Origin: Shewanella sp. TC10
Lineage (GTDB): Bacteria; Pseudomonadota; Gammaproteobacteria; Enterobacterales; Shewanellaceae
DNA: 64,000 nt
NCBI RefSeq assembly: GCF_009663145.1
Contig: NZ_VKHR01000023.1
Span: forward strand, 1 to 64,000
Direction of reading: 5' to 3'
In this document: positions 11,113 through 26,172 of the stretch, in pieces
Layout: the number at the start of each line of letters is the position of its first letter
How positions within the stretch are numbered: position 1 is the first letter of the stretch
Notes under the pieces: generated by a model
Database searches by the model: none
Told to the model about the DNA's origin: nothing
The model's input: only the letters and a program-made list of their open reading frames with translations
Position numbers and translations under genes: made by a program

Positions 11113-11393
11113 TAGGGCCTGTTGAACTTTGCCGGATAAGTTTTGTTCGAAATGAAAGCGTTTTAATCGAGGCGGATGAGTTGATGCCTAGTCATCTAAG
11201 CACCTTTTATTCACAAAGATGCATCCAGCAAAAAGTAAAACGCTTTAAGTAGAACCCTTTGGGCTGCGTTTGTTGGTCATTTTTACTGCGTTATCGACTT
11301 TTTATGTAGAATAACTACACTACAAAGTCTCTGCCTTGTATAAATGGCCAACAATTCGCTGCAAAAACTACCTTGAAAGATCAACAGGCCCTA
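11113..11393 (+). mobile_element. MITE-like element, copy 3 (281-bp form)
   Basis: Same family as the copy at 3405. Left end TAGGGCCTGTTGAACTTT, right end AAAGATCAACAGGCCCTA, flanked by TA on both sides. It shares with copy 2 the 14 extra central bases. It lies in the 560-bp gap between the lipoprotein gene and the glutaredoxin-like gene. Confidence 0.84.
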
Positions 11394-17743: not shown

Positions 17744-18238
17744 CTAAGCTTCAATTTCTGTCTTGAATATTGAAAATCCACGAGCTTGATAGTTTTTTAA
17801 AGCACTAGGATGGTCAAGAGAGCAAGTGTGAACCCAAACTCTTTGGGTATTTTCAAGTGACCATGCTTTTTCGATAGCTTGGCTAAGTAAATACCCACCC
17901 ATGCCTTTACCAATATAGCGAACCCCAAGTCCGAAGTACATTATCTCGACGTTTCCATCTTCTTGTTGCTGCAGCTCAAAGTAACCCGCTGGAGAGCCTT
18001 CAAAGTACGCGACATATAAATGAAGCTTATTATCTTCGCTATACTGCTGCCATTGTGCTTCACTCCAGCCCAACTTGTCAGTCCATTCCCAAGCTGCGCC
18101 AACAAACTGATACAAGAAACGATTATATTCAAATTGCGGAACCTCAGCTTTTGTCACTGTTAACCCTTTTGCATCAGTTTTTGCGTTTAATTGATTTACA
18201 TGGGTCATTTCTAAATGAAAAATAGTTACATCAGACAT
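17744..18238 (-). CDS. GNAT-family acetyltransferase
   Basis: 164 residues. Visible are the strand NVEIMYFGLGV, motif A RYIGKGMGGYLLSQAIEKA with the acetyl-CoA loop, and the terminal HPSALKNYQARGFSIF. The N-terminal 60 residues contain a Trp-rich segment (WEWTDKLGWSEAQWQQY). AAGG lies before the ATG at 18238. Substrate unknown. It is followed by no obvious terminator and converges on the VOC/DUF1289 pair. Confidence 0.84.
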   Translation of the reverse strand: MSDVTIFHLEMTHVNQLNAKTDAKGLTVTKAEVPQFEYNRFLYQFVGAAWEWTDKLGWSEAQWQQYSEDNKLHLYVAYFEGSPAGYFELQQQEDGNVEIMYFGLGVRYIGKGMGGYLLSQAIEKAWSLENTQRVWVHTCSLDHPSALKNYQARGFSIFKTEIEA

Positions 18239-18287
18239 GGAAAACCTTTAAAAATTAGTAGGAACAGTGACTTTAAGATTGGAGGCT

Positions 18288-18515
18288 TCAACTTACAGGT
18301 TTTAAAGGCGAATTATCTTTAATCATGACCAAAACTGCAATATAAATTAGTGCTAAAGGAGGAAAGAAAGCGAGTAAAAAACCAATCGTAGTGGCTAGTT
18401 TAGGTGAAGACGTTTTTTTACTCCCTAATTTATAACTGCTCCAAGTAATAAAAATCGTAAATGGTAACCAAAGCAGCATCACTAATTGTCCAATAAAAGT
18501 GGCATTAATTGACAT
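18288..18515 (-). CDS. Small two-helix membrane protein
   Basis: 75 residues with two membrane segments (about 8-28 and 42-65) joined by a basic Ser/Lys loop (YKLGSKKTSSPKLA). AAGGA precedes the ATG by 7 bases. No family recognised. It lies about 50 bp upstream of the acetyltransferase on the same strand, so the two may be cotranscribed. Confidence 0.65.
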   Translation of the reverse strand: MSINATFIGQLVMLLWLPFTIFITWSSYKLGSKKTSSPKLATTIGFLLAFFPPLALIYIAVLVMIKDNSPLKPVS

Positions 18516-18591
18516 TATTTAATCCTTTAAATATTGAATTTATAACTAATTGTTAAAATAGCATTGAAAATATAGTGTATAAACAATAATA

Positions 18592-18622
18592 AAAAAGCCA
18601 TCGACAGTCGATGGCTTTATTA
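18592..18622. terminator. Terminator behind the asnB relic
   Basis: An 11-bp stem (AAAGCCATCGA / TCGATGGCTTT) with a 3-base loop and A/T runs on both sides. On the minus strand it comes 22 bp after the relic's TAA, so it may be the original asnB terminator, left behind when the insert separated it from the gene (inference). Confidence 0.8.
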
Positions 18623-18643
18623 AAAATAGGCTGTTTATAACAG

Positions 18644-18777
18644 TTAATAAGCACTGTCATGGACGTTTTTAACGGCACGTCCAGATGGGTCGTTAATGCT
18701 CTGTAAGCTTCTCTTACAGTAGCGTTCAGAGAGGGGAGGAACAAACAACTGTTTTAATAGCAGGTACTGTTTCATTT
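18644..18777 (-). pseudogene. Frameshifted relic of the asnB 3' end
   Basis: Reading the minus strand, the last codons give SLQSINDPSGRAVKNVHDSAY and a TAA, identical except for one residue to the end of the intact asnB at 21264 (SLQGINDPSG...). Farther upstream another frame gives ETVPAIKTVVCSSP, matching ETVPGGKTVACSTP of AsnB, so at least one frameshift separates the two pieces. The homology stops about 10 bp before the stop codon of the 390-residue gene. It marks one edge of an insert whose other edge is the living asnB end. No start codon or remaining function. Confidence 0.85.
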
Positions 18778-18787
18778 CAGAATATTT

Positions 18788-19960
18788 TTAAAGCTTTATG
18801 TTGAGCTTTGGGGAAAATAGAACTCTGCAGGGATAATATTTTTCAGTATTCACTAATTGTTCTAAATCTACTATGAGTTTTTTTTGAGCTTCACTTTCAC
18901 CTAACACTTCCTGGTTATCTAGCCAATTACTGGCGAACTCTTCATCAACTAGCATAATTAAATTTGCATAAGGCGGTAAACTAATAAATTGATCTGATCT
19001 GAATTTGTTGATTTGCCTTTGTATTTCTTCTGCTGCTTTTTCGTTGTTTTCATTTTGATATGTGTTTTTGAGTATTGAGTACCCGAAAGCCTGATTCGAG
19101 ACAGTCGTTGGTCTTTCAACTATGTTTCTACCAACGGTTAGGCAGGCATTTGACGTTTTAACATCATTATCTTCATTGTTACACCAAGTTGTTATAGGTG
19201 ACAATATAGCAGGGATGGTAGCTGCTTCCACTCCTATAGCTGTAATTAAATTCGAGCCAAAGTGGCCAAATTGGTTATTCTCCATTATTTGTGTAAATAG
19301 CTTGATTCGCTTGGCATAGTTGTTAGAAAAAAAAGTGCTTTCGTCTAAATTGGTGATAGCTTCATATATTTGAGCATCATTTTTTTGGGATATAAAGTAA
19401 GCTGTAGCTGCTAACCAAAAAGCGCCATCTTTTTTAACCGTTTCCGATGTACTTTCGATCAAGTTTTCATTGCATATTGGGTTATTTGAATTAGTTACAC
19501 ACTCACCGATAAGGCTTATACGAGATACTGGTTCCTCAGGATTATTTAAACTAAATTGATAAAGGTTGTCTAACCTTGAACCTTCCTGAGGGCTTGAAAA
19601 TAACGCAAAACCCAATTTATCCTCAGCTAAAGTTGATTTTTCTAGCCCATCTATAATTGATTTCGGGTTATCAAAAGGAGCATTTAATCTTTCTGTATCA
19701 ACACCGCATTGTGACAATAAATCCATTACCTCTGATTCTGATAATATTATTTCAGGTTCAGCATTTTTTATGACGTTAGCTTTATCATCTTGCATTGTCA
19801 CTTTGGTTTCGAGCTGTTCGGAGAAGTTTTGCGGAGTGGTTAAGGTTTTTTCTTTTTTGCTATTTACTAAGGGCTCACTTAGCTTACTAAAGTGATTAAA
19901 CATTACAATAGTTCCAATAGATATAATGATTACTATCGATACGATACCTTTGTTTATCAT
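18788..19960 (-). CDS. Unrecognised membrane-anchored periplasmic protein
   Basis: 390 residues. One N-terminal hydrophobic anchor (about 5-24), then a soluble, presumably periplasmic, acidic region with probable helical character. Single cysteines occur throughout (QCGVDTERL, GECVTNSNNPICNENL, TWCNNEDN, NACLTVG), which could form disulfides. No family recognised. The gene is AT-rich compared with its neighbours. It lies between the asnB relic and an IS30-type element, so it probably arrived by transfer and may be the cargo of that insert. GGGAG lies 11 bases before the ATG. Confidence 0.65.
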   Translation of the reverse strand: MINKGIVSIVIIISIGTIVMFNHFSKLSEPLVNSKKEKTLTTPQNFSEQLETKVTMQDDKANVIKNAEPEIILSESEVMDLLSQCGVDTERLNAPFDNPKSIIDGLEKSTLAEDKLGFALFSSPQEGSRLDNLYQFSLNNPEEPVSRISLIGECVTNSNNPICNENLIESTSETVKKDGAFWLAATAYFISQKNDAQIYEAITNLDESTFFSNNYAKRIKLFTQIMENNQFGHFGSNLITAIGVEAATIPAILSPITTWCNNEDNDVKTSNACLTVGRNIVERPTTVSNQAFGYSILKNTYQNENNEKAAEEIQRQINKFRSDQFISLPPYANLIMLVDEEFASNWLDNQEVLGESEAQKKLIVDLEQLVNTEKYYPCRVLFSPKLNIKL

Positions 19961-20162
19961 TTTGTAGCGAACTCCCTGTGACTATAAAAATATAATTTTA
20001 AATCCTTTATTTTTATTACTTTGTATTAATTCAAAACTAAGGTCAAGGCATAGTAATTTAAGATGATGTAATTGATTTACCTAAGGGAAATCAATTTTAG
20101 CTAATGCAGGGTAATGTATTCTTCTTTGGATAAACAAAATATTTAACCCAGCATTCAGATAA

Positions 20163-21197
20163 TAACTGCGACACTCTTAACTGAGGTATAGAGGAGCTAA
20201 CTGAAGAAAGTGGTAGGCTTTATTTCGCCAAAGAAAAAAGAGTATCACTATGAGTTATAAGCAGTTGACTGAGGGAGGAAGATATCAGATTTCAGCCCTT
20301 TTGGAAGGAGATATTTCAGTATCAGACATTGCAGGCGCAGTAAAATGTCATCGTTCAACCGTTTATCTAGAATTGAAGCGTGGTTGTAATAATTCGCAGT
20401 ATTCACCTGTGGTAGCGCACCAGTTATCAGTGATGAAACGACGTTATGCAACCAAGTATCGAATACCACAACATCGTATCGATTCTACTGAGGTTTTACT
20501 CACCAATGACTGGAGCCCTGGGCAAATATCGAACGTGTTAACCCATGTGGGTGCTAATGTAAATCATGAATGGATTTATCGTTTCATTGCGCTCGATAAG
20601 AGGCAAGGCGGCAAGCTATACCGTCACTTGCGTCAGGGGCATAAAAGGTATCGACGAGGTAAAAAAGAACGCAAACCTGTCATTAAGAATGCAGTTTCTA
20701 TAGATGAAAGACCAGAGGTTGTTGATAAGCGTGAGCGTTTTGGTGACTGGGAAATTGATACTGTTTTGGGTAAGCATGGAACTGGGGTAATAGTGACAAT
20801 TTTAGAACGAGAAACACGTTTTTACCTAGCCAAGAAAGTGCCTTCAAAATCAGCAGAAGATGTCTCTAGAGCAACAATCGTACAAGCAGTTCGTTCATAC
20901 AATAACGGCTGACAATGGTCGAAAATTTACAGGCCACCAAGACATAGCTAAGGCACTAGAAACAGATGTGTACTTCGCCCACCCATACAGCTCCTGGGAA
21001 CGTGGTGCGAATGAAAACGCCAATGGTCTGTTTAGGCGATATGTTAAAAAAGTTACCGATTTAAGCAAAGTAAGTGATGAGACTATTGTGTTTGCAATGA
21101 ACAGAATTAACTGCAGACCAAGGAAGTGTTTGAAGTTTAAGCAGCCAGCTTTTGTATTTAAACAACTAGCCGCTTAATTTACCGAGTGTCGCACTTC
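20163..21197 (+). mobile_element. IS30-type insertion sequence, decayed
   Basis: About 1.03 kb. The left end reads AACTGCGACACTCTTAA and the right end, inverted, AAGTGCGACACTCGGTAA, sharing the 10-bp core TGCGACACTC. The enclosed gene is an IS30-type transposase broken by a frameshift. The exact outer limits and target duplication could not be fixed by eye. It lies 70 bp from the asnB stop codon. Confidence 0.75.
20250..21177 (+). pseudogene. IS30-family transposase, frameshifted
   Basis: The first frame (20250-20912) carries the N-terminal helix-turn-helix (SVSDIAGAVKCHRSTVYLEL) and the first catalytic Asp (FGDWEIDTVLGK). It then stops in the middle of the DDE domain at a TGA. A second frame, from about 20885, continues with VHTITADNGRKF (second Asp) and GANENANGLFRRY (Glu), ending at 21177. 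Compared with intact IS30 members, a few residues before the VHTIT strand seem lost, so a small deletion or frameshift rather than programmed slippage is likely. The element is probably immobile unless helped in trans. Confidence 0.85.
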
Positions 21198-21263
21198 GTA
21201 GTTGAATTCGGGACTAACCACTAATTCAAGTGGTTAGTTATTATGGTTTTTTATGTGTAAAAC

Positions 21264-22928
21264 TTAATAAGCACTATCATGAACGTTTTTAACTGCGCGT
21301 CCAGAAGGATCGTTAATGCCCTGTAAGCTTTCATCCCAAAGTAGTGCTTCAGGTGTTGAACAAGCAACCGTTTTCCCGCCAGGAACTGTTTCAGCCGCAG
21401 TTTCAAGTGGGAAGAACTCTTCAAAGAAACTACGGTAGTAATAGGCTTCTTTAGATTCTGGCGTGTTATATGGGAATCTAAATTTAGCATTTGCCAGCTG
21501 TAAGTCGTCTACTTGTTCTGCTGCAATATCTTTCAATCCATCAATCCAAGAGTAACCCACGCCATCACTGAACTGCTCTTTTTGACGCCATACCACTTCA
21601 TGTGGCAATGCATGTTCAAAGGCTTCACGTAAGATGTTTTTCTCAATGCGTCCATCTTTAGACATTTTCGCTTCAGGGTTGATACGCATCGCTACATCCA
21701 TAAACTCTTTGTCTAAGAAGGGTACACGAGCTTCAAGTCCCCACGCTGCCATCGCTTTGTTTGCGCGTAAGCAGTCAAATAAATGCAGTTTATCAAGCTT
21801 ACGAACCAATTCTTCATGAAAAGCTTGTGCGTTTGGTGCTTTATGGAAGTACAAGTAACCGCCAAATAGCTCATCTGCACCTTCGCCTGATAACACCATT
21901 TTAATCCCCATGGCTTTAATCTTACGTGCCATTAGATACATTGGAGTTGCAGCGCGGATGGTTGTAACGTCATAGGTTTCTAAGTGGTAAATCACTTCCT
22001 TAATCGCATCAAGACCTTCTTGGAAAGTGAAGTGGATTTCGTGATGAATAGTGCCAATATCATCAGCCACTTTTTTAGCTGCAATTAAATCAGGAGCACC
22101 TTCTAAGCCTACTGCAAACGAGTGCAGTTGTGGCCACCAAGCATCAGTTTCACTGTCGTTTTCAATTCGACGTTTCGCAAACGTTTGAGTAATGGCCGAT
22201 ATAACGGATGAATCTAAGCCGCCTGATAATAATACGCCGTAAGGTACATCTGACATTAGTTGACGTTTTACCGCAGCTTCTAAGGCATCACGTAAGTCTT
22301 CTTTACTTGCTGGGTTGTCTTTTACAGCATCATAATCACGCCAATCGCGTTGATAATACTCGGTTAAATCAGCATCTTTTGAATAGTGATAATGACCAGG
22401 CTTAAATTCCTCTACGGTTTTACATACAGGCATTAATGCTTTCATTTCAGAGGCAATATAATAGTTGCCTAAACTGTCACGGCCAGAGTAAAGCGGGATA
22501 ATTCCCATGTGATCGCGACCAACTAAAAATGCATCTTTTGTTTTGTCGTAAAGTACAAAAGCAAAAATACCGTTCAGCTTATCTAAGAAGTCTACGCCGT
22601 ATTCTTGGTATAAGGCTAAAATAACTTCACAGTCAGAGTTCGTTTTATAACGATACTTTTCACCTAACTGTTCTTTAAGTTGCTTATGGTTATAAATTTC
22701 ACCATTCACTGCGAGGACGATGCTGTCATCTTCGCTGATTAGTGGTTGTGCGCCGTGATCAACGTCGACAATGGCAAGACGTTCATGGGCAAGAATCGCT
22801 TTATCATCGGCATAAACGCCTGACCAATCTGGACCACGGTGACGTAATAGCTTTGACATTTCTAAAGCCACTTGACGCAATTCTTTAGCGTCTGATTGAA
22901 TATCTAAAATCGAAAAAATTGAACACAT
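21264..22928 (-). CDS. asnB: Asparagine synthetase B (glutamine-hydrolysing)
   Basis: 554 residues, the same length as E. coli AsnB. Cys2 is the N-terminal glutaminase nucleophile (MCSIFSILD), with LLRHRGPDWSG and NGEIYNHKQL of the class II amidotransferase domain. The synthetase half has the PP-loop LLSGGLDSSVISAI and SGEGADELFGGYLYF. It converts aspartate plus glutamine and ATP to asparagine. GGAG lies 7 bases before the ATG. The 3' end is also present as a degenerate copy at 18644-18777, so the living gene may have had its end replaced or restored by an insertion. No hairpin with a T run follows the stop. Confidence 0.95.
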   Translation of the reverse strand: MCSIFSILDIQSDAKELRQVALEMSKLLRHRGPDWSGVYADDKAILAHERLAIVDVDHGAQPLISEDDSIVLAVNGEIYNHKQLKEQLGEKYRYKTNSDCEVILALYQEYGVDFLDKLNGIFAFVLYDKTKDAFLVGRDHMGIIPLYSGRDSLGNYYIASEMKALMPVCKTVEEFKPGHYHYSKDADLTEYYQRDWRDYDAVKDNPASKEDLRDALEAAVKRQLMSDVPYGVLLSGGLDSSVISAITQTFAKRRIENDSETDAWWPQLHSFAVGLEGAPDLIAAKKVADDIGTIHHEIHFTFQEGLDAIKEVIYHLETYDVTTIRAATPMYLMARKIKAMGIKMVLSGEGADELFGGYLYFHKAPNAQAFHEELVRKLDKLHLFDCLRANKAMAAWGLEARVPFLDKEFMDVAMRINPEAKMSKDGRIEKNILREAFEHALPHEVVWRQKEQFSDGVGYSWIDGLKDIAAEQVDDLQLANAKFRFPYNTPESKEAYYYRSFFEEFFPLETAAETVPGGKTVACSTPEALLWDESLQGINDPSGRAVKNVHDSAY

Positions 22929-23224
22929 AATGTGGCTCCAAAAATGTAATACAACACTTAATAATCTTTATCTGGAATTCACTTTGACAGCATTTTATGC
23001 AGGGTTCAACCTTAATTTTTGAATTATTCTTAGTAAAATGTTGTTTCTGGTGTGGTTAATCTTTGTTTTTGCCTTGTCGTTTTGAGGATCGGTTAAACTT
23101 GTAACGATTTTATTGATGAATATTGATTTTACTCTCTAAAATTGCCATGTCGATTTGAGAATATTGAATCAGGGAGAGATAAATTCTAAAGATTAAAATA
23201 TGTATTTATTTGGCGTAAATTTAA
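22929..23224. other. Upstream region of asnB
   Basis: About 300 bp, AT-rich, between asnB (start) and the end of the M28 peptidase gene. It must hold the asnB promoter; I cannot single out -35/-10 boxes with confidence. No coding frame worth calling. Confidence 0.45.
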
Positions 23225-23257
23225 ACAAAAAACCCTTGGAATAGAAACTTCCAAGGG
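23225..23257 (-). terminator. Terminator of the M28 peptidase gene
   Basis: On the minus strand CCCTTGGAA pairs with TTCCAAGGG around 7 bases, followed by TTTTTTG. It begins 35 bp after the gene's stop codon. Confidence 0.85.
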
Positions 23258-23291
23258 ATTGAGTAATGAAAATCGTTATAACGTTCTCGGA

Positions 23292-24965
23292 TTAGTCTTT
23301 TGCTGGTCGAAGGCTGTTAAACTCTGAGCCTTTATAATAACCAGGCCAGTCATTACTGTTTGCCAAGGTTTCAGCTGCTTGATAATAAACAGCGAGATCT
23401 TGCAGAGCTCCAGATAAGTCCCAACCTTCTCGGTAGTGATCGCAGACGCTGTGATAACAACCTTTCATTTCGATTTGCATCGCTTGTTTATACTTTGCTG
23501 TGGCTTCATCTAATGGAACACTTCCACCACCTGCAAACACTGCTGGCACACCCAGTTTGGCAAAACTGAAATGGTCAGAGCGGAAAAAACCACCTGATGC
23601 AGGGTTACGTTCACGGGTAGCGGTTCGGTTTTGAGTGCTTGCTACAGAAATAAGGTACTCTTCTAATTCCGACTGTCCTTTACCCACAATAGTGTAATCT
23701 TGGGTTTTACCGTACACATTGGTGCTGTCTAAATTAAACACGGCAACGGTTTTATCAATAGGGTAAATAGGGTTGGCGGCGTAATAACGAGATCCAAGTA
23801 AGCCTTGCTCTTCACCTGTTGTTGCAATAAATGTCAGCGAGCGTTTTAAGCCATTTCCTTGCTCAGCTTGTTTAGCGAATTGGCGCGCAATTTCTAGAAT
23901 ACCGGCTGTACCAGAGGCGTTATCAAGTGCGCCATTATAGATATTATCGCCATCTTTGGTTAAATCGATGCCGAGGTGATCCCAGTGAGCCGTGAACAAA
24001 ATATGCTCTGCTTTTGCGTCTGTTCCAGGAAGCGTTGCGACTACGTTATAACTGTCGGCGTATTCGGCTTTACTGGTAAAGGCAATATCAGCAGTTTGGT
24101 TTAAGTCGAGGCTAATTGCACTGTCTGAAGCTCGGGCCATTAAGTTAGGCAGCTCAAAACCTGCTTTTTTGAAAATAGCAGTGGCACTTTCTAAGGTCAT
24201 CCAGCCTTCAACTGCGATACGCTTATCTTGTATTTCTTTACTGAATACCAGATCTTGTTGTGCGCCAGTCCAGCTATTTTCGACAACTGACCAAGGGTAA
24301 GAAGCTGGAGCTGTATCATGAATAATGATGGCACCTAACGCACCTTGTCGACTCGCTTCTTCAAATTTATAACTCCAACGGCCGTAATAAGTCATGGCTT
24401 TACCATTAAACTTATCAGACTCTGGGTGAGCAAAACCGGGATCGTTAACCATGATCACCGCAATCTTGCCTTTCATGTCTAAACCGTCATAGTCATTCCA
24501 TTGATATTCTGGTGCGTTAACGCCGTAACCGACGAAAACCAATGGTGCATTGTTAATATCAACGCCACCTTTATCATGGCGAGTACCTAAAACAATATCT
24601 TCTCGATTGGTTAAATTAATTCCAGCTAAGCTAATCTGCTGAGATTCACTGGCAGTGTAGCTCACCATAGGGACAGGCTGTAAATAGCTGTCTTGGTAAG
24701 TCGTTTTTAAGCCCATTTCTTTAAAGGCTGCAGATAGGTAATCAAGGGTTAACTTTTCACCTTTAGTTGTGGGAGCACGTCCTTCAAACTCATCTGACGA
24801 TAATGTTTTAATATCTTTTCTAAAACGAGCTTCATCAAAGGTTACCTGACTGGATGAAGTTGAATCAGCAGTTACAGAAGAGGGATTAGAGGTTTGCTCT
24901 TTAGCACTTTGAGGGCTGCATGCGCTTAATAAAGCTAAGGCGCAGAATGGGAGCAATTTTTTCAT
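23292..24965 (-). CDS. M28-family metallopeptidase, lipoprotein
   Basis: 557 residues. Type II signal peptide with lipobox LLSAC (Cys16, then Ser), so probably an outer-membrane lipoprotein. A protease-associated (PA) insert around 130-280 (INNAPLVFVGYGVNAPEY, GALGAIIIHDT) precedes the M28 zinc domain: FTAHWDHLGI (first His), GALDNASGTAGILE (bridging Asp), TTGEEQGLLGSRYYA (catalytic Glu), NLDSTN and SDHFSFAKLGVPAV. All metal and catalytic residues are present. Members are broad aminopeptidases of the cell surface. AGGA lies 6 bases before the ATG. A three-copy 21-bp repeat lies just upstream. Confidence 0.9.
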   Translation of the reverse strand: MKKLLPFCALALLSACSPQSAKEQTSNPSSVTADSTSSSQVTFDEARFRKDIKTLSSDEFEGRAPTTKGEKLTLDYLSAAFKEMGLKTTYQDSYLQPVPMVSYTASESQQISLAGINLTNREDIVLGTRHDKGGVDINNAPLVFVGYGVNAPEYQWNDYDGLDMKGKIAVIMVNDPGFAHPESDKFNGKAMTYYGRWSYKFEEASRQGALGAIIIHDTAPASYPWSVVENSWTGAQQDLVFSKEIQDKRIAVEGWMTLESATAIFKKAGFELPNLMARASDSAISLDLNQTADIAFTSKAEYADSYNVVATLPGTDAKAEHILFTAHWDHLGIDLTKDGDNIYNGALDNASGTAGILEIARQFAKQAEQGNGLKRSLTFIATTGEEQGLLGSRYYAANPIYPIDKTVAVFNLDSTNVYGKTQDYTIVGKGQSELEEYLISVASTQNRTATRERNPASGGFFRSDHFSFAKLGVPAVFAGGGSVPLDEATAKYKQAMQIEMKGCYHSVCDHYREGWDLSGALQDLAVYYQAAETLANSNDWPGYYKGSEFNSLRPAKD

Positions 24966-24999
24966 AGGTCGTCCTATTGTTATTTTTAGGTATTGTTAT

Positions 25000-25062
25000 C
25001 TATAGGTATATTAAAACCAGCTATAGGTATATTAAAACCAGCTATAGGTATATTAAAACCAG
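25000..25062. repeat. Three perfect 21-bp direct repeats upstream of the M28 gene
   Basis: Three identical head-to-tail copies of a 21-bp unit (start CTATAGGTATATT, end AAAACCAG) at 25000, 25021 and 25042. They lie 35-97 bp upstream of the M28 start on the opposite reading strand. On the minus strand each copy offers TAATAT and TATACC, which resemble -10 boxes. The next 225 bp toward nagD hold nothing I can name. Confidence 0.9.
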
Positions 25063-25290
25063 AACTACCTCAGTGAGTTTGCGACAGGTAATTGGATATA
25101 GCCATGCAGGCATAATGAATCAAGCTTATAACACGAACAAGGTTATAAGCTTGAAAATATGTTACCTAATGTTAACCGAAAGGAGAGGTAGCAGATTCCT
25201 CTGAATAATGACTATTTAACAGAGTATTTAAGTATATTGAGCTGAGCTAATTGCTTATGTATGAGCCTAGTTAACTTTAGCCTTGAGCTG

Positions 25291-26037
25291 CTAGACCACA
25301 TCAATATCGCCAGCGCATTTGAATACATGATTGGGTCTGAAAGGCTCTTTATCGATATCGGCCATTTGGCTGACGCCACTGGTTACTAATATCGTTTCTA
25401 AACCAGCTTGAAAGCCTGCCAGAATATCAGTGCGCATATTGTCGCCGATAATAACCGTGTTTTCTGAGTGACCTTTGATATGATTTAACGCTGAACGTAT
25501 TATCCAAGAGCTAGGTTTCCCCACGTAAAAAGGCTTCTTACCTGTAATACGCTCTATTGGTGAGCAAAGTGCGCCGCAAGCTGGACTGTAAGCAGGACCA
25601 TGGGTATCTGGGTTCGTCGCGATGAAGCGGGCGCCATCAGCAATAAAACGTGAAGCTTTATGGATCATGTCCCAGTTAAATGAGCGAGTCTCACCGACAA
25701 TGACAAAGTCAGGATTAATATCAGTAATCGTAAAGCCAGCGTTATAGAGTTCATGGGTTAGGGCACCTTCACCAATCACATAGGCCTTACTGCCTTGTTG
25801 GTGCTTAAGGAAATCGGCAGTGGCCATTGCTGAGGTGTAAAAGCAGGTTTCAGGAACATTAATTCCTGCAGCCCCAAGGCGGTTTTGCAGATCTTTTCCT
25901 GTTTGTACTGGGTAGTTGGTGAGTATAACGAGCGGATTACCTTGCTCTAGTACTCTATGGATAAAAGTATCACTTCCAGGGATGAGTTTGTTGTCGTGCA
26001 GTAAAACGCCGTCAATATCGCAGATAATATTTTTCAT
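25291..26037 (-). CDS. nagD: HAD-family nucleotide phosphatase NagD
   Basis: 248 residues, like E. coli NagD (250). HAD motifs are in order: CDIDGVLLHD (nucleophile Asp), LTNYPVQTG, YVGKPSSW and IIGDNMRTDILAGFQAG. Long stretches are almost identical to NagD (FYTSAMATADFLKH, NPDFVIVGETRSFNWDM, ARFIATNPDTHGP). NagD dephosphorylates UMP and other nucleotides in the cytoplasm; in enterobacteria it sits in the nag operon. Here it stands alone between an M28 peptidase gene and sdaA. The gene is short but complete. Confidence 0.93.
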   Translation of the reverse strand: MKNIICDIDGVLLHDNKLIPGSDTFIHRVLEQGNPLVILTNYPVQTGKDLQNRLGAAGINVPETCFYTSAMATADFLKHQQGSKAYVIGEGALTHELYNAGFTITDINPDFVIVGETRSFNWDMIHKASRFIADGARFIATNPDTHGPAYSPACGALCSPIERITGKKPFYVGKPSSWIIRSALNHIKGHSENTVIIGDNMRTDILAGFQAGLETILVTSGVSQMADIDKEPFRPNHVFKCAGDIDVV

Positions 26038-26172
26038 TGAACGCTCTTAATTGGATGAATACTATAAACATCTAAAGGTATTTCTACCTAAAAAACAATC
26101 AAAAGCGCACTAATCATCCAAATTCTGATAAATGCGCAAAAGTGAACAAGGCTTTATAGAAAATCGAGTCAC

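What the first reader, a model, noticed from the sequence alone, without database searches (positions are those of the whole stretch)
18644..21264. asnB 3' end is duplicated around a 2.5-kb insert
A frameshifted relic of the AsnB C-terminus (SLQSINDPSGRAVKNVHDSAY) lies behind the 390-residue gene, and the intact asnB ends just past the IS30-type element. This is the picture left when a piece of DNA carrying its own asnB end inserts at the 3' end of the gene and displaces the old end, as integrative elements do at other housekeeping genes. No integrase is visible, so it may be a decayed island, a gene conversion, or a second asnB copy eroded by deletion.
Basis: partly seen in the sequence, partly recalled or inferred. 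Interest (0 to 1): 0.65.

Follow-up and report, generated by a model that had tools for sequence, protein, structure and literature searches.

The report
Foreign DNA displaced asnB gene's end
In a Shewanella, a small piece of foreign DNA carrying one gene of unknown role, and probably its own copy of the end of the asparagine-synthase gene, was inserted there and left a decaying second copy of that gene end behind; this is an ordinary kind of gene-transfer scar.

Summary
asnB (21264-22928, minus strand) is intact, and a second, frameshifted copy of its last ~130 bases lies at 18644-18774 (77.6% identical; 100 bits, against at most 29.2 in shuffled DNA). The window is a Shewanella next to S. 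olleyana. In the two nearest genomes asnB ends once, directly before the DNA that follows the relic here, and the relic's terminator matches those of S. olleyana and genome G128. So the relic's place is the old asnB end, and 18775-21263 is an insertion; a second asnB tail occurs in 1 of 129 Shewanella genomes. The insert holds one low-GC accessory gene (390 aa), a broken IS30 element, and a different hairpin behind the working asnB end.

An integrative element is not supported: no tyrosine integrase on the contig, longest shared run 12 bases, no relative using the site. I favour insertion anchored by homology in asnB (a single crossover, less likely homology-facilitated illegitimate recombination). 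Ordinary; low interest.

The parts
21264..22928 (-). asnB, intact asparagine synthase B (554 aa)
   Evidence: PRK09431 equivalog E 6.8e-289; 99% aa identity to the two nearest relatives
21264..21542 (-). last ~279 nt of asnB: possibly a donor-supplied end (boundary inferred, not proved)
   Evidence: 12.9% differences from S. olleyana here, 6.2% in the rest; 1 of 2000 codon shuffles reaches the changepoint; sister support 99/100 in the first 1386 nt, none in the last 279, but the sister pair is not rejected there (p-AU 0.416); wide background variation
21213..21238 (-). new hairpin behind asnB (10-bp stem, 6-nt loop), probable terminator whose T-rich run now lies beyond the IS
   Evidence: fold of the two flanks without the IS, -14.8 kcal/mol; no match beside asnB among those listed for 129 Shewanella genomes except its own
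20147..21212 (+). IS30-family element, transposase frameshifted near 20900, terminal repeats present
   Evidence: NF033563 hits on both frames; ends by comparison with other copies
19961..20146 (-). leader of the 390-aa gene; only matches of 25-43 nt elsewhere in the genus
18788..19960 (-). 390-aa accessory gene of unknown function, hydrophobic N-terminus, GC 34.7%
   Evidence: lowest GC of 36 ORFs of 200 aa or more in the window; relatives at about 50% in 3 of 117 Shewanella genomes at other loci
18644..18774 (-). decaying second copy of the asnB 3' end (about 130 nt), at the ancestral position
18590..18622 (-). ancestral asnB terminator, now behind the relic
   Evidence: inverted repeat I4; same hairpin behind asnB of S. 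olleyana and G128
17744..18515 (-). ancestral downstream genes (75-aa ORF 18288-18515, GNAT 17744-18238)
   Evidence: they directly follow asnB in G031; GNAT alone does in G028

Best explanation
A piece of DNA from another bacterium, most likely a Shewanella, holding the 3' end of its asnB with its own terminator and the 390-aa gene, entered the chromosome at asnB by recombination anchored in the asnB sequence. The likelier route is one crossover of a circular molecule that carried a piece of an asnB end; the other is a linear piece anchored by homology on the asnB side and joined illegitimately on the other. The working gene took the donor's end; the native end and terminator were pushed about 1.55 kb downstream (stop to stop; 2.62 kb now, after a later IS30 insertion at the base of the new hairpin) and decay as a relic. 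Shown: the two ends, the empty site in relatives, the ancestral terminator and flank behind the relic, the unrelated hairpin behind the working end. Inferred: the donor, that the working tail is the donor's, the route, the order of events.
For: Empty site with one asnB end in both nearest relatives; relic's downstream DNA and terminator orthologous to those of S. olleyana and G128; second tail in 1 of 129 Shewanella genomes and 1 of 136 fetched loci; last 279 nt of asnB twice as far from S. olleyana as the rest, sister support 99/100 in the body and no supported sister in the tail; the divergent tract (best 279 nt, lnL gain 6.64 against 3.48 at 132 nt) looks longer than the 130-nt duplication, which a cut at a fixed att core would not give; 390-aa gene with low GC and unusual codons, found at other loci elsewhere; no tyrosine integrase on the contig. 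In E. coli, single crossovers of a circular molecule gave duplications of 109-950 bp of a gene end beside the inserted DNA (PMC3240628, passages seen).
Against: Tail kinship does not decide which copy is native and partly leans the other way. All six AU tests on the 132-nt tails have p above 0.1. On the last 279 nt the window plus S. olleyana is not rejected (p-AU 0.416; the best tree joins window and G028 at 44/85). Of 8 informative sites, 5 join working tail with S. olleyana and relic with G028, 1 joins the two window copies, 2 join relic with S. olleyana. Identity to S. olleyana varies from 66 to 96% per 200 bp across the flanks, so the tail's drop could be ordinary variation. The relic's first part is far more changed than its last 69 columns (18 of 60 against 4 of 68 differences from G028, Fisher 0.0003), unexplained. 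No donor with asnB next to the 390-aa gene was found. Against the linear route: the passages of PMC3240628 say that HFIR products generally carry a deletion, not a duplication, and that HFIR is very rare.
Confidence: 0.5

Rival explanations
1. Remnant of a site-specific integrative element that used the asnB 3' end as attB, supplied a replacement end and later lost its integrase.
For: The anatomy is the same: gene kept whole by an element-borne end, old terminator displaced. Islands at the 3' ends of trmE and yicC are known (PMC8409611, passages seen).
Against: No PF00589 match on contig C2, 9 elsewhere in the genome; no exact run above 12 nt; 0 of 128 other Shewanella genomes has a second tail; no asnB tail in 50,697 phage records or in viral contigs (one exact degenerate pattern); the 14 plasmid-collection hits carry an asnB tail at 58-64%, contexts not examined; the divergent tract seems longer than the repeat.
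Confidence: 0.2
2. The reverse assignment: the working asnB tail is native and the relic came in with the insert, the crossover lying near the stop codon.
For: 5 of 8 informative sites join working tail and S. olleyana against relic and G028; the relic's last 69 nt are 92.8% identical to G028 but 82.6% to S. olleyana. It would also explain a relic of two unlike halves.
Against: The bases after the relic's stop are like S. olleyana and G128, those after the working stop match nothing beside asnB, so the crossover would have to fall in the last few bases; the last 279 nt of asnB have no supported link to S. olleyana; AU tests do not decide.
Confidence: 0.15
3. Duplication within the same genome: an event at asnB copied its last 130 nt while joining in foreign DNA, or a tandem asnB copy was eroded by deletion.
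For: The divergence of the two copies (22% over 130 nt) is not too large for decay since about the split from S. olleyana (inference); the two copies as sisters are not rejected (AU p 0.406).
Against: The working copy lacks the ancestral terminator and downstream DNA while the relic has them; only 1 of 8 informative sites joins the two copies; none of the 128 other Shewanella genomes has two tails.
Confidence: 0.13

Closest known systems
Single-crossover partial duplications and homology-facilitated illegitimate recombination (HFIR)
   Same: Foreign DNA of about 1-2 kb joined through homology on one side; single crossovers leave part of the target gene's end duplicated beside it (E. coli; PMC3240628, passages seen)
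   Different: Natural and old; donor unknown; the duplicated end is divergent. True HFIR products there generally carry deletions instead
Displaced 3' ends in V. cholerae T6SS effector clusters and Rhs loci
   Same: An incoming module replaces the 3' part of a gene and pushes the old end downstream, with HFIR proposed as the route (PMC5361080, passages seen)
   Different: There the replaced part is a variable toxin or effector region; here both ends encode the same housekeeping C-terminus
Genomic islands at gene 3' ends (SGI1 at trmE, elements at yicC)
   Same: Target gene carries the island at its 3' end (PMC8409611, passages seen); that it keeps working with an element-supplied end is recalled
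   Different: No integrase found here, no clear att repeat, site not reused in the relatives searched
IS30 family
   Same: Transposase family and terminal repeats
   Different: Transposase broken; a passenger, not the cause of the duplication

Membership tests
Site-specific integrative element / genomic island | Own integrase at one end | tested here: not met
   No PF00589 match on contig C2; 9 matches on other contigs. Serine recombinases not searched
Site-specific integrative element / genomic island | Short near-identical att repeats at both ends | tested here: inconclusive
   130-nt divergent repeat; exact runs of 10 or more: 12, 11, 10 and 10 nt; a core may have decayed
Site-specific integrative element / genomic island | Target gene kept whole, old end displaced | tested here: met
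   (that the working tail is the element's is not proved)
Site-specific integrative element / genomic island | Same site used by related elements elsewhere | tested here: not met
   Second asnB tail in 1 of 129 Shewanella genomes, 1 of 136 loci with a median of 8 kb downstream
Homology-anchored insertion (single crossover or HFIR) | Foreign DNA flanked by a partial duplication of the target gene, no recombinase of its own seen | tested here: met
Homology-anchored insertion (single crossover or HFIR) | Donor sequence on the homologous side of the junction | tested here: inconclusive
   Changepoint at 279 nt and no supported sister, but AU tests undecided and site counts lean the other way
Homology-anchored insertion (single crossover or HFIR) | 3-10 bp microhomology at the other junction (HFIR; PMC3240628) | not testable with these tools
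   No donor sequence found
IS30 family | IS30-type transposase | tested here: met
   NF033563, E 6.5e-49 and 1.6e-33 on two frames
IS30 family | Terminal inverted repeats and short target duplication | tested here: inconclusive
   Terminal repeats match other copies; the 3 bases on either side (TAA, ACT; read) are not a duplication; the duplication as a family trait is recalled

The most novel reading that the evidence does not exclude
The 390-aa gene family is a single-gene mobile unit without a recombinase that spreads through marine Shewanella by using homology at its landing place: a 98.7% identical 1470-bp unit lies at unrelated loci in two species, and here a relative came with a borrowed asnB end.
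Probability: 0.07. Interest if true: 0.45.

Novelty: new member of a known kind. Interest (0 to 1): 0.2.

Why it matters
It is a readable scar of gene transfer: two ends of a housekeeping gene are kept, each with its own hairpin, so an insertion at a gene's 3' end can be told from tandem duplication. It also warns that a broken copy of a gene end beside an IS need not mean an IS-made duplication or an integrase island. Beyond that it is ordinary.

Tried and rejected
IS30 as cause of the duplication: rejected, because its ends lie 51 bases and about 1.4 kb away from the two asnB ends. Tandem duplication: disfavoured by the terminators. Trees of the 132-nt tail with 24 rows and 9 rows with six AU tests: no decision. 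My first count of shared sites, made by eye, was redone by script (5, 1 and 2 of 8). Structure prediction of the 390-aa protein from one sequence: mean pLDDT 40.5, useless, so no fold search was run. Families for the 390-aa protein: Pfam DUF4476 only below its cut-off; NCBIfam and PADLOC none; PHROGs only hits of E 0.28 or worse. Empty sites of its relatives in G021 and G116: no flanking direct duplication was found, and the regions of related genomes that I fetched gave no clean empty site. The plasmid, phage and viral collections gave no donor. Papers on asnB as an integration site: none; one search listed one paper, whose listing shows 0 occurrences of asnB. One search (Shewanella competence) listed nothing that I used; the listings were seen, and of their papers only PMC5361080, PMC3240628 and PMC8409611 were opened, by passages.
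Full report
Observation. asnB is complete at 21264-22928 on the minus strand. A second copy of its last ~130 nt lies at 18644-18774, 77.6% identical with small indels that break the frame. It scores 100 bits against at most 29.2 in 500 shuffles, 439 of which gave any hit. Between them lie a 390-aa ORF (18788-19960, minus) and an IS30-family element whose transposase is split over two frames; by comparison with other copies the IS spans 20147-21212.

What the ancestor looked like. In G031, window 17751-18772 and 21265-26105 align to one unbroken stretch in which the asnB end is used twice. There asnB is followed after ~130 bp by the 75-aa ORF and then GNAT; in G028 by GNAT alone. The relic's hairpin, GCCATCGAC/GTCGATGGC, stands behind asnB in G031 and almost letter for letter in G128. 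So the relic's position and terminator are the ancestral junction and 18775-21263 is an insertion. Among the 20 loci compared, GNAT lies in the roughly 8 kb held downstream of asnB in 4, so the neighbourhood is informative only in close relatives.

How rare. A search with the last 42 residues of AsnB (E up to 0.01) found one match in each of 128 other Shewanella genomes and two in this one. In 136 loci (window included, some genomes twice; 4 with under 2 kb downstream; median 8 kb) only the window has a same-strand copy of its own asnB tail; L159 had a 22-nt opposite-strand match that I take as chance.

The new end. After the working stop codon come 51 bases with a perfect 10-bp hairpin and then the IS; the T-rich stretch expected of a terminator lies on the far side of the IS, next to the leader of the 390-aa gene. 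Of the 39 of 129 genomes with any match to these bases (E up to 0.1), only the own genome has it beside asnB; the others are short matches away from the asnB places. The leader has only matches of 25-43 nt.

Kinship of the tails. In the first 1386 nt of asnB the window is sister to S. olleyana (99/100; the pair with G028 has p-AU 5e-6). In the last 279 nt it is 12.9% different from S. olleyana and 10.8% from G028; the best tree joins it to G028 weakly (44/85), and the pair with S. olleyana is not rejected (p-AU 0.416). The changepoint is reached by 1 of 2000 codon shuffles, and the window-S. olleyana pair gives the strongest changepoint of 57 pairs (that genome was fetched twice, so it appears twice). 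Against a donor tail: identity along the flanks varies from 66 to 96% per 200 bp; tail trees place neither copy; and of 8 informative sites among window tail, relic, S. olleyana and G028, 5 join working tail with S. olleyana and relic with G028, 1 joins the two window copies and 2 join relic with S. olleyana. The relic is also of two unlike parts: 18 of 60 differences from G028 in the first, 4 of 68 in the last 69 columns (Fisher 0.0003). I therefore rest the assignment on terminators and flanks, and keep the reverse assignment open.

The cargo. The 390-aa protein has no family above a cut-off and no convincing hit in PADLOC or PHROGs. Its gene has the lowest GC of 36 ORFs of 200 aa or more in the window and the second lowest codon score. 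Relatives at about 50% identity occur in 3 of 117 Shewanella genomes at other loci, with weak ones in 5 more, and matches occur in 28 of 394 genomes of the order, own genome counted. Two of the 50% relatives, in G021 and G116, share a 1470-bp stretch at 98.7% in unrelated surroundings, so this gene travels. None was found in plasmids or viral contigs.

Mechanism. An integrase island needs an integrase and an att core: there is no PF00589 match on the contig although nine lie elsewhere in the genome, the longest shared run is 12 nt, and no relative uses the site. A single crossover of a circle with an asnB end, or homology-facilitated illegitimate recombination (HFIR) of a linear piece, needs only homology in asnB. 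The former gave duplications of 109-950 bp of a gene end in E. coli; the same passages say that HFIR is very rare and generally leaves a deletion, which speaks for the crossover (PMC3240628, passages). HFIR was proposed for displaced 3' ends in V. cholerae T6SS clusters (PMC5361080, passages). The divergent tract appears longer (279 nt, lnL gain 6.64 against 3.48 at 132 nt) than the repeat, which, if real, fits homology-anchored insertion better than a fixed att core. I give homology-anchored insertion with a donor tail 0.5, an integrase island 0.2, the reverse assignment 0.15 and duplication inside the genome 0.13.

Verdict. A real, well-preserved scar of an insertion at a housekeeping gene, of a known kind. 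Interest low.

Noticed in passing
L081:7711-9179 (G021, S. abyssi) and L082:8779-10248 (G116): A 1470-bp unit with a relative of the 390-aa gene is 98.7% identical between two Shewanella species at unrelated loci. The left flank of the first recurs in its own genome; pieces of the left flank of the second recur many times in related genomes. No flanking direct duplication was found.
   Followed up: partly
L083, around the relative of the 390-aa gene (G122): Both flanks of the unit carry short pieces in inverted order (32, 23, 19, 15 and 18 nt pairs, 94-100% alike) up to 1.4 kb away, as if the unit sat inside an old inverted duplication.
   Followed up: no
20147-21212: The IS30 element sits at the base of a perfect 10-bp hairpin, as if it had chosen a terminator as target; no target duplication is visible.
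   Followed up: partly
G000:C104:42059-42729: A second, truncated copy of the IS30 element (89% over 671 bp) elsewhere in the same genome.
   Followed up: no
11113-11393: Window 11113-11236 aligns in the opposite orientation to its neighbours in S. olleyana, and 11190-11393 aligns to a different place (between GNAT2 and the DUF445 gene) in G028: probably a small interspersed repeat.
   Followed up: no
18644-18774: The first part of the relic is much more changed than its last 69 columns (18 of 60 against 4 of 68 differences from G028); unexplained, unless the relic itself is a recombinant.
   Followed up: partly
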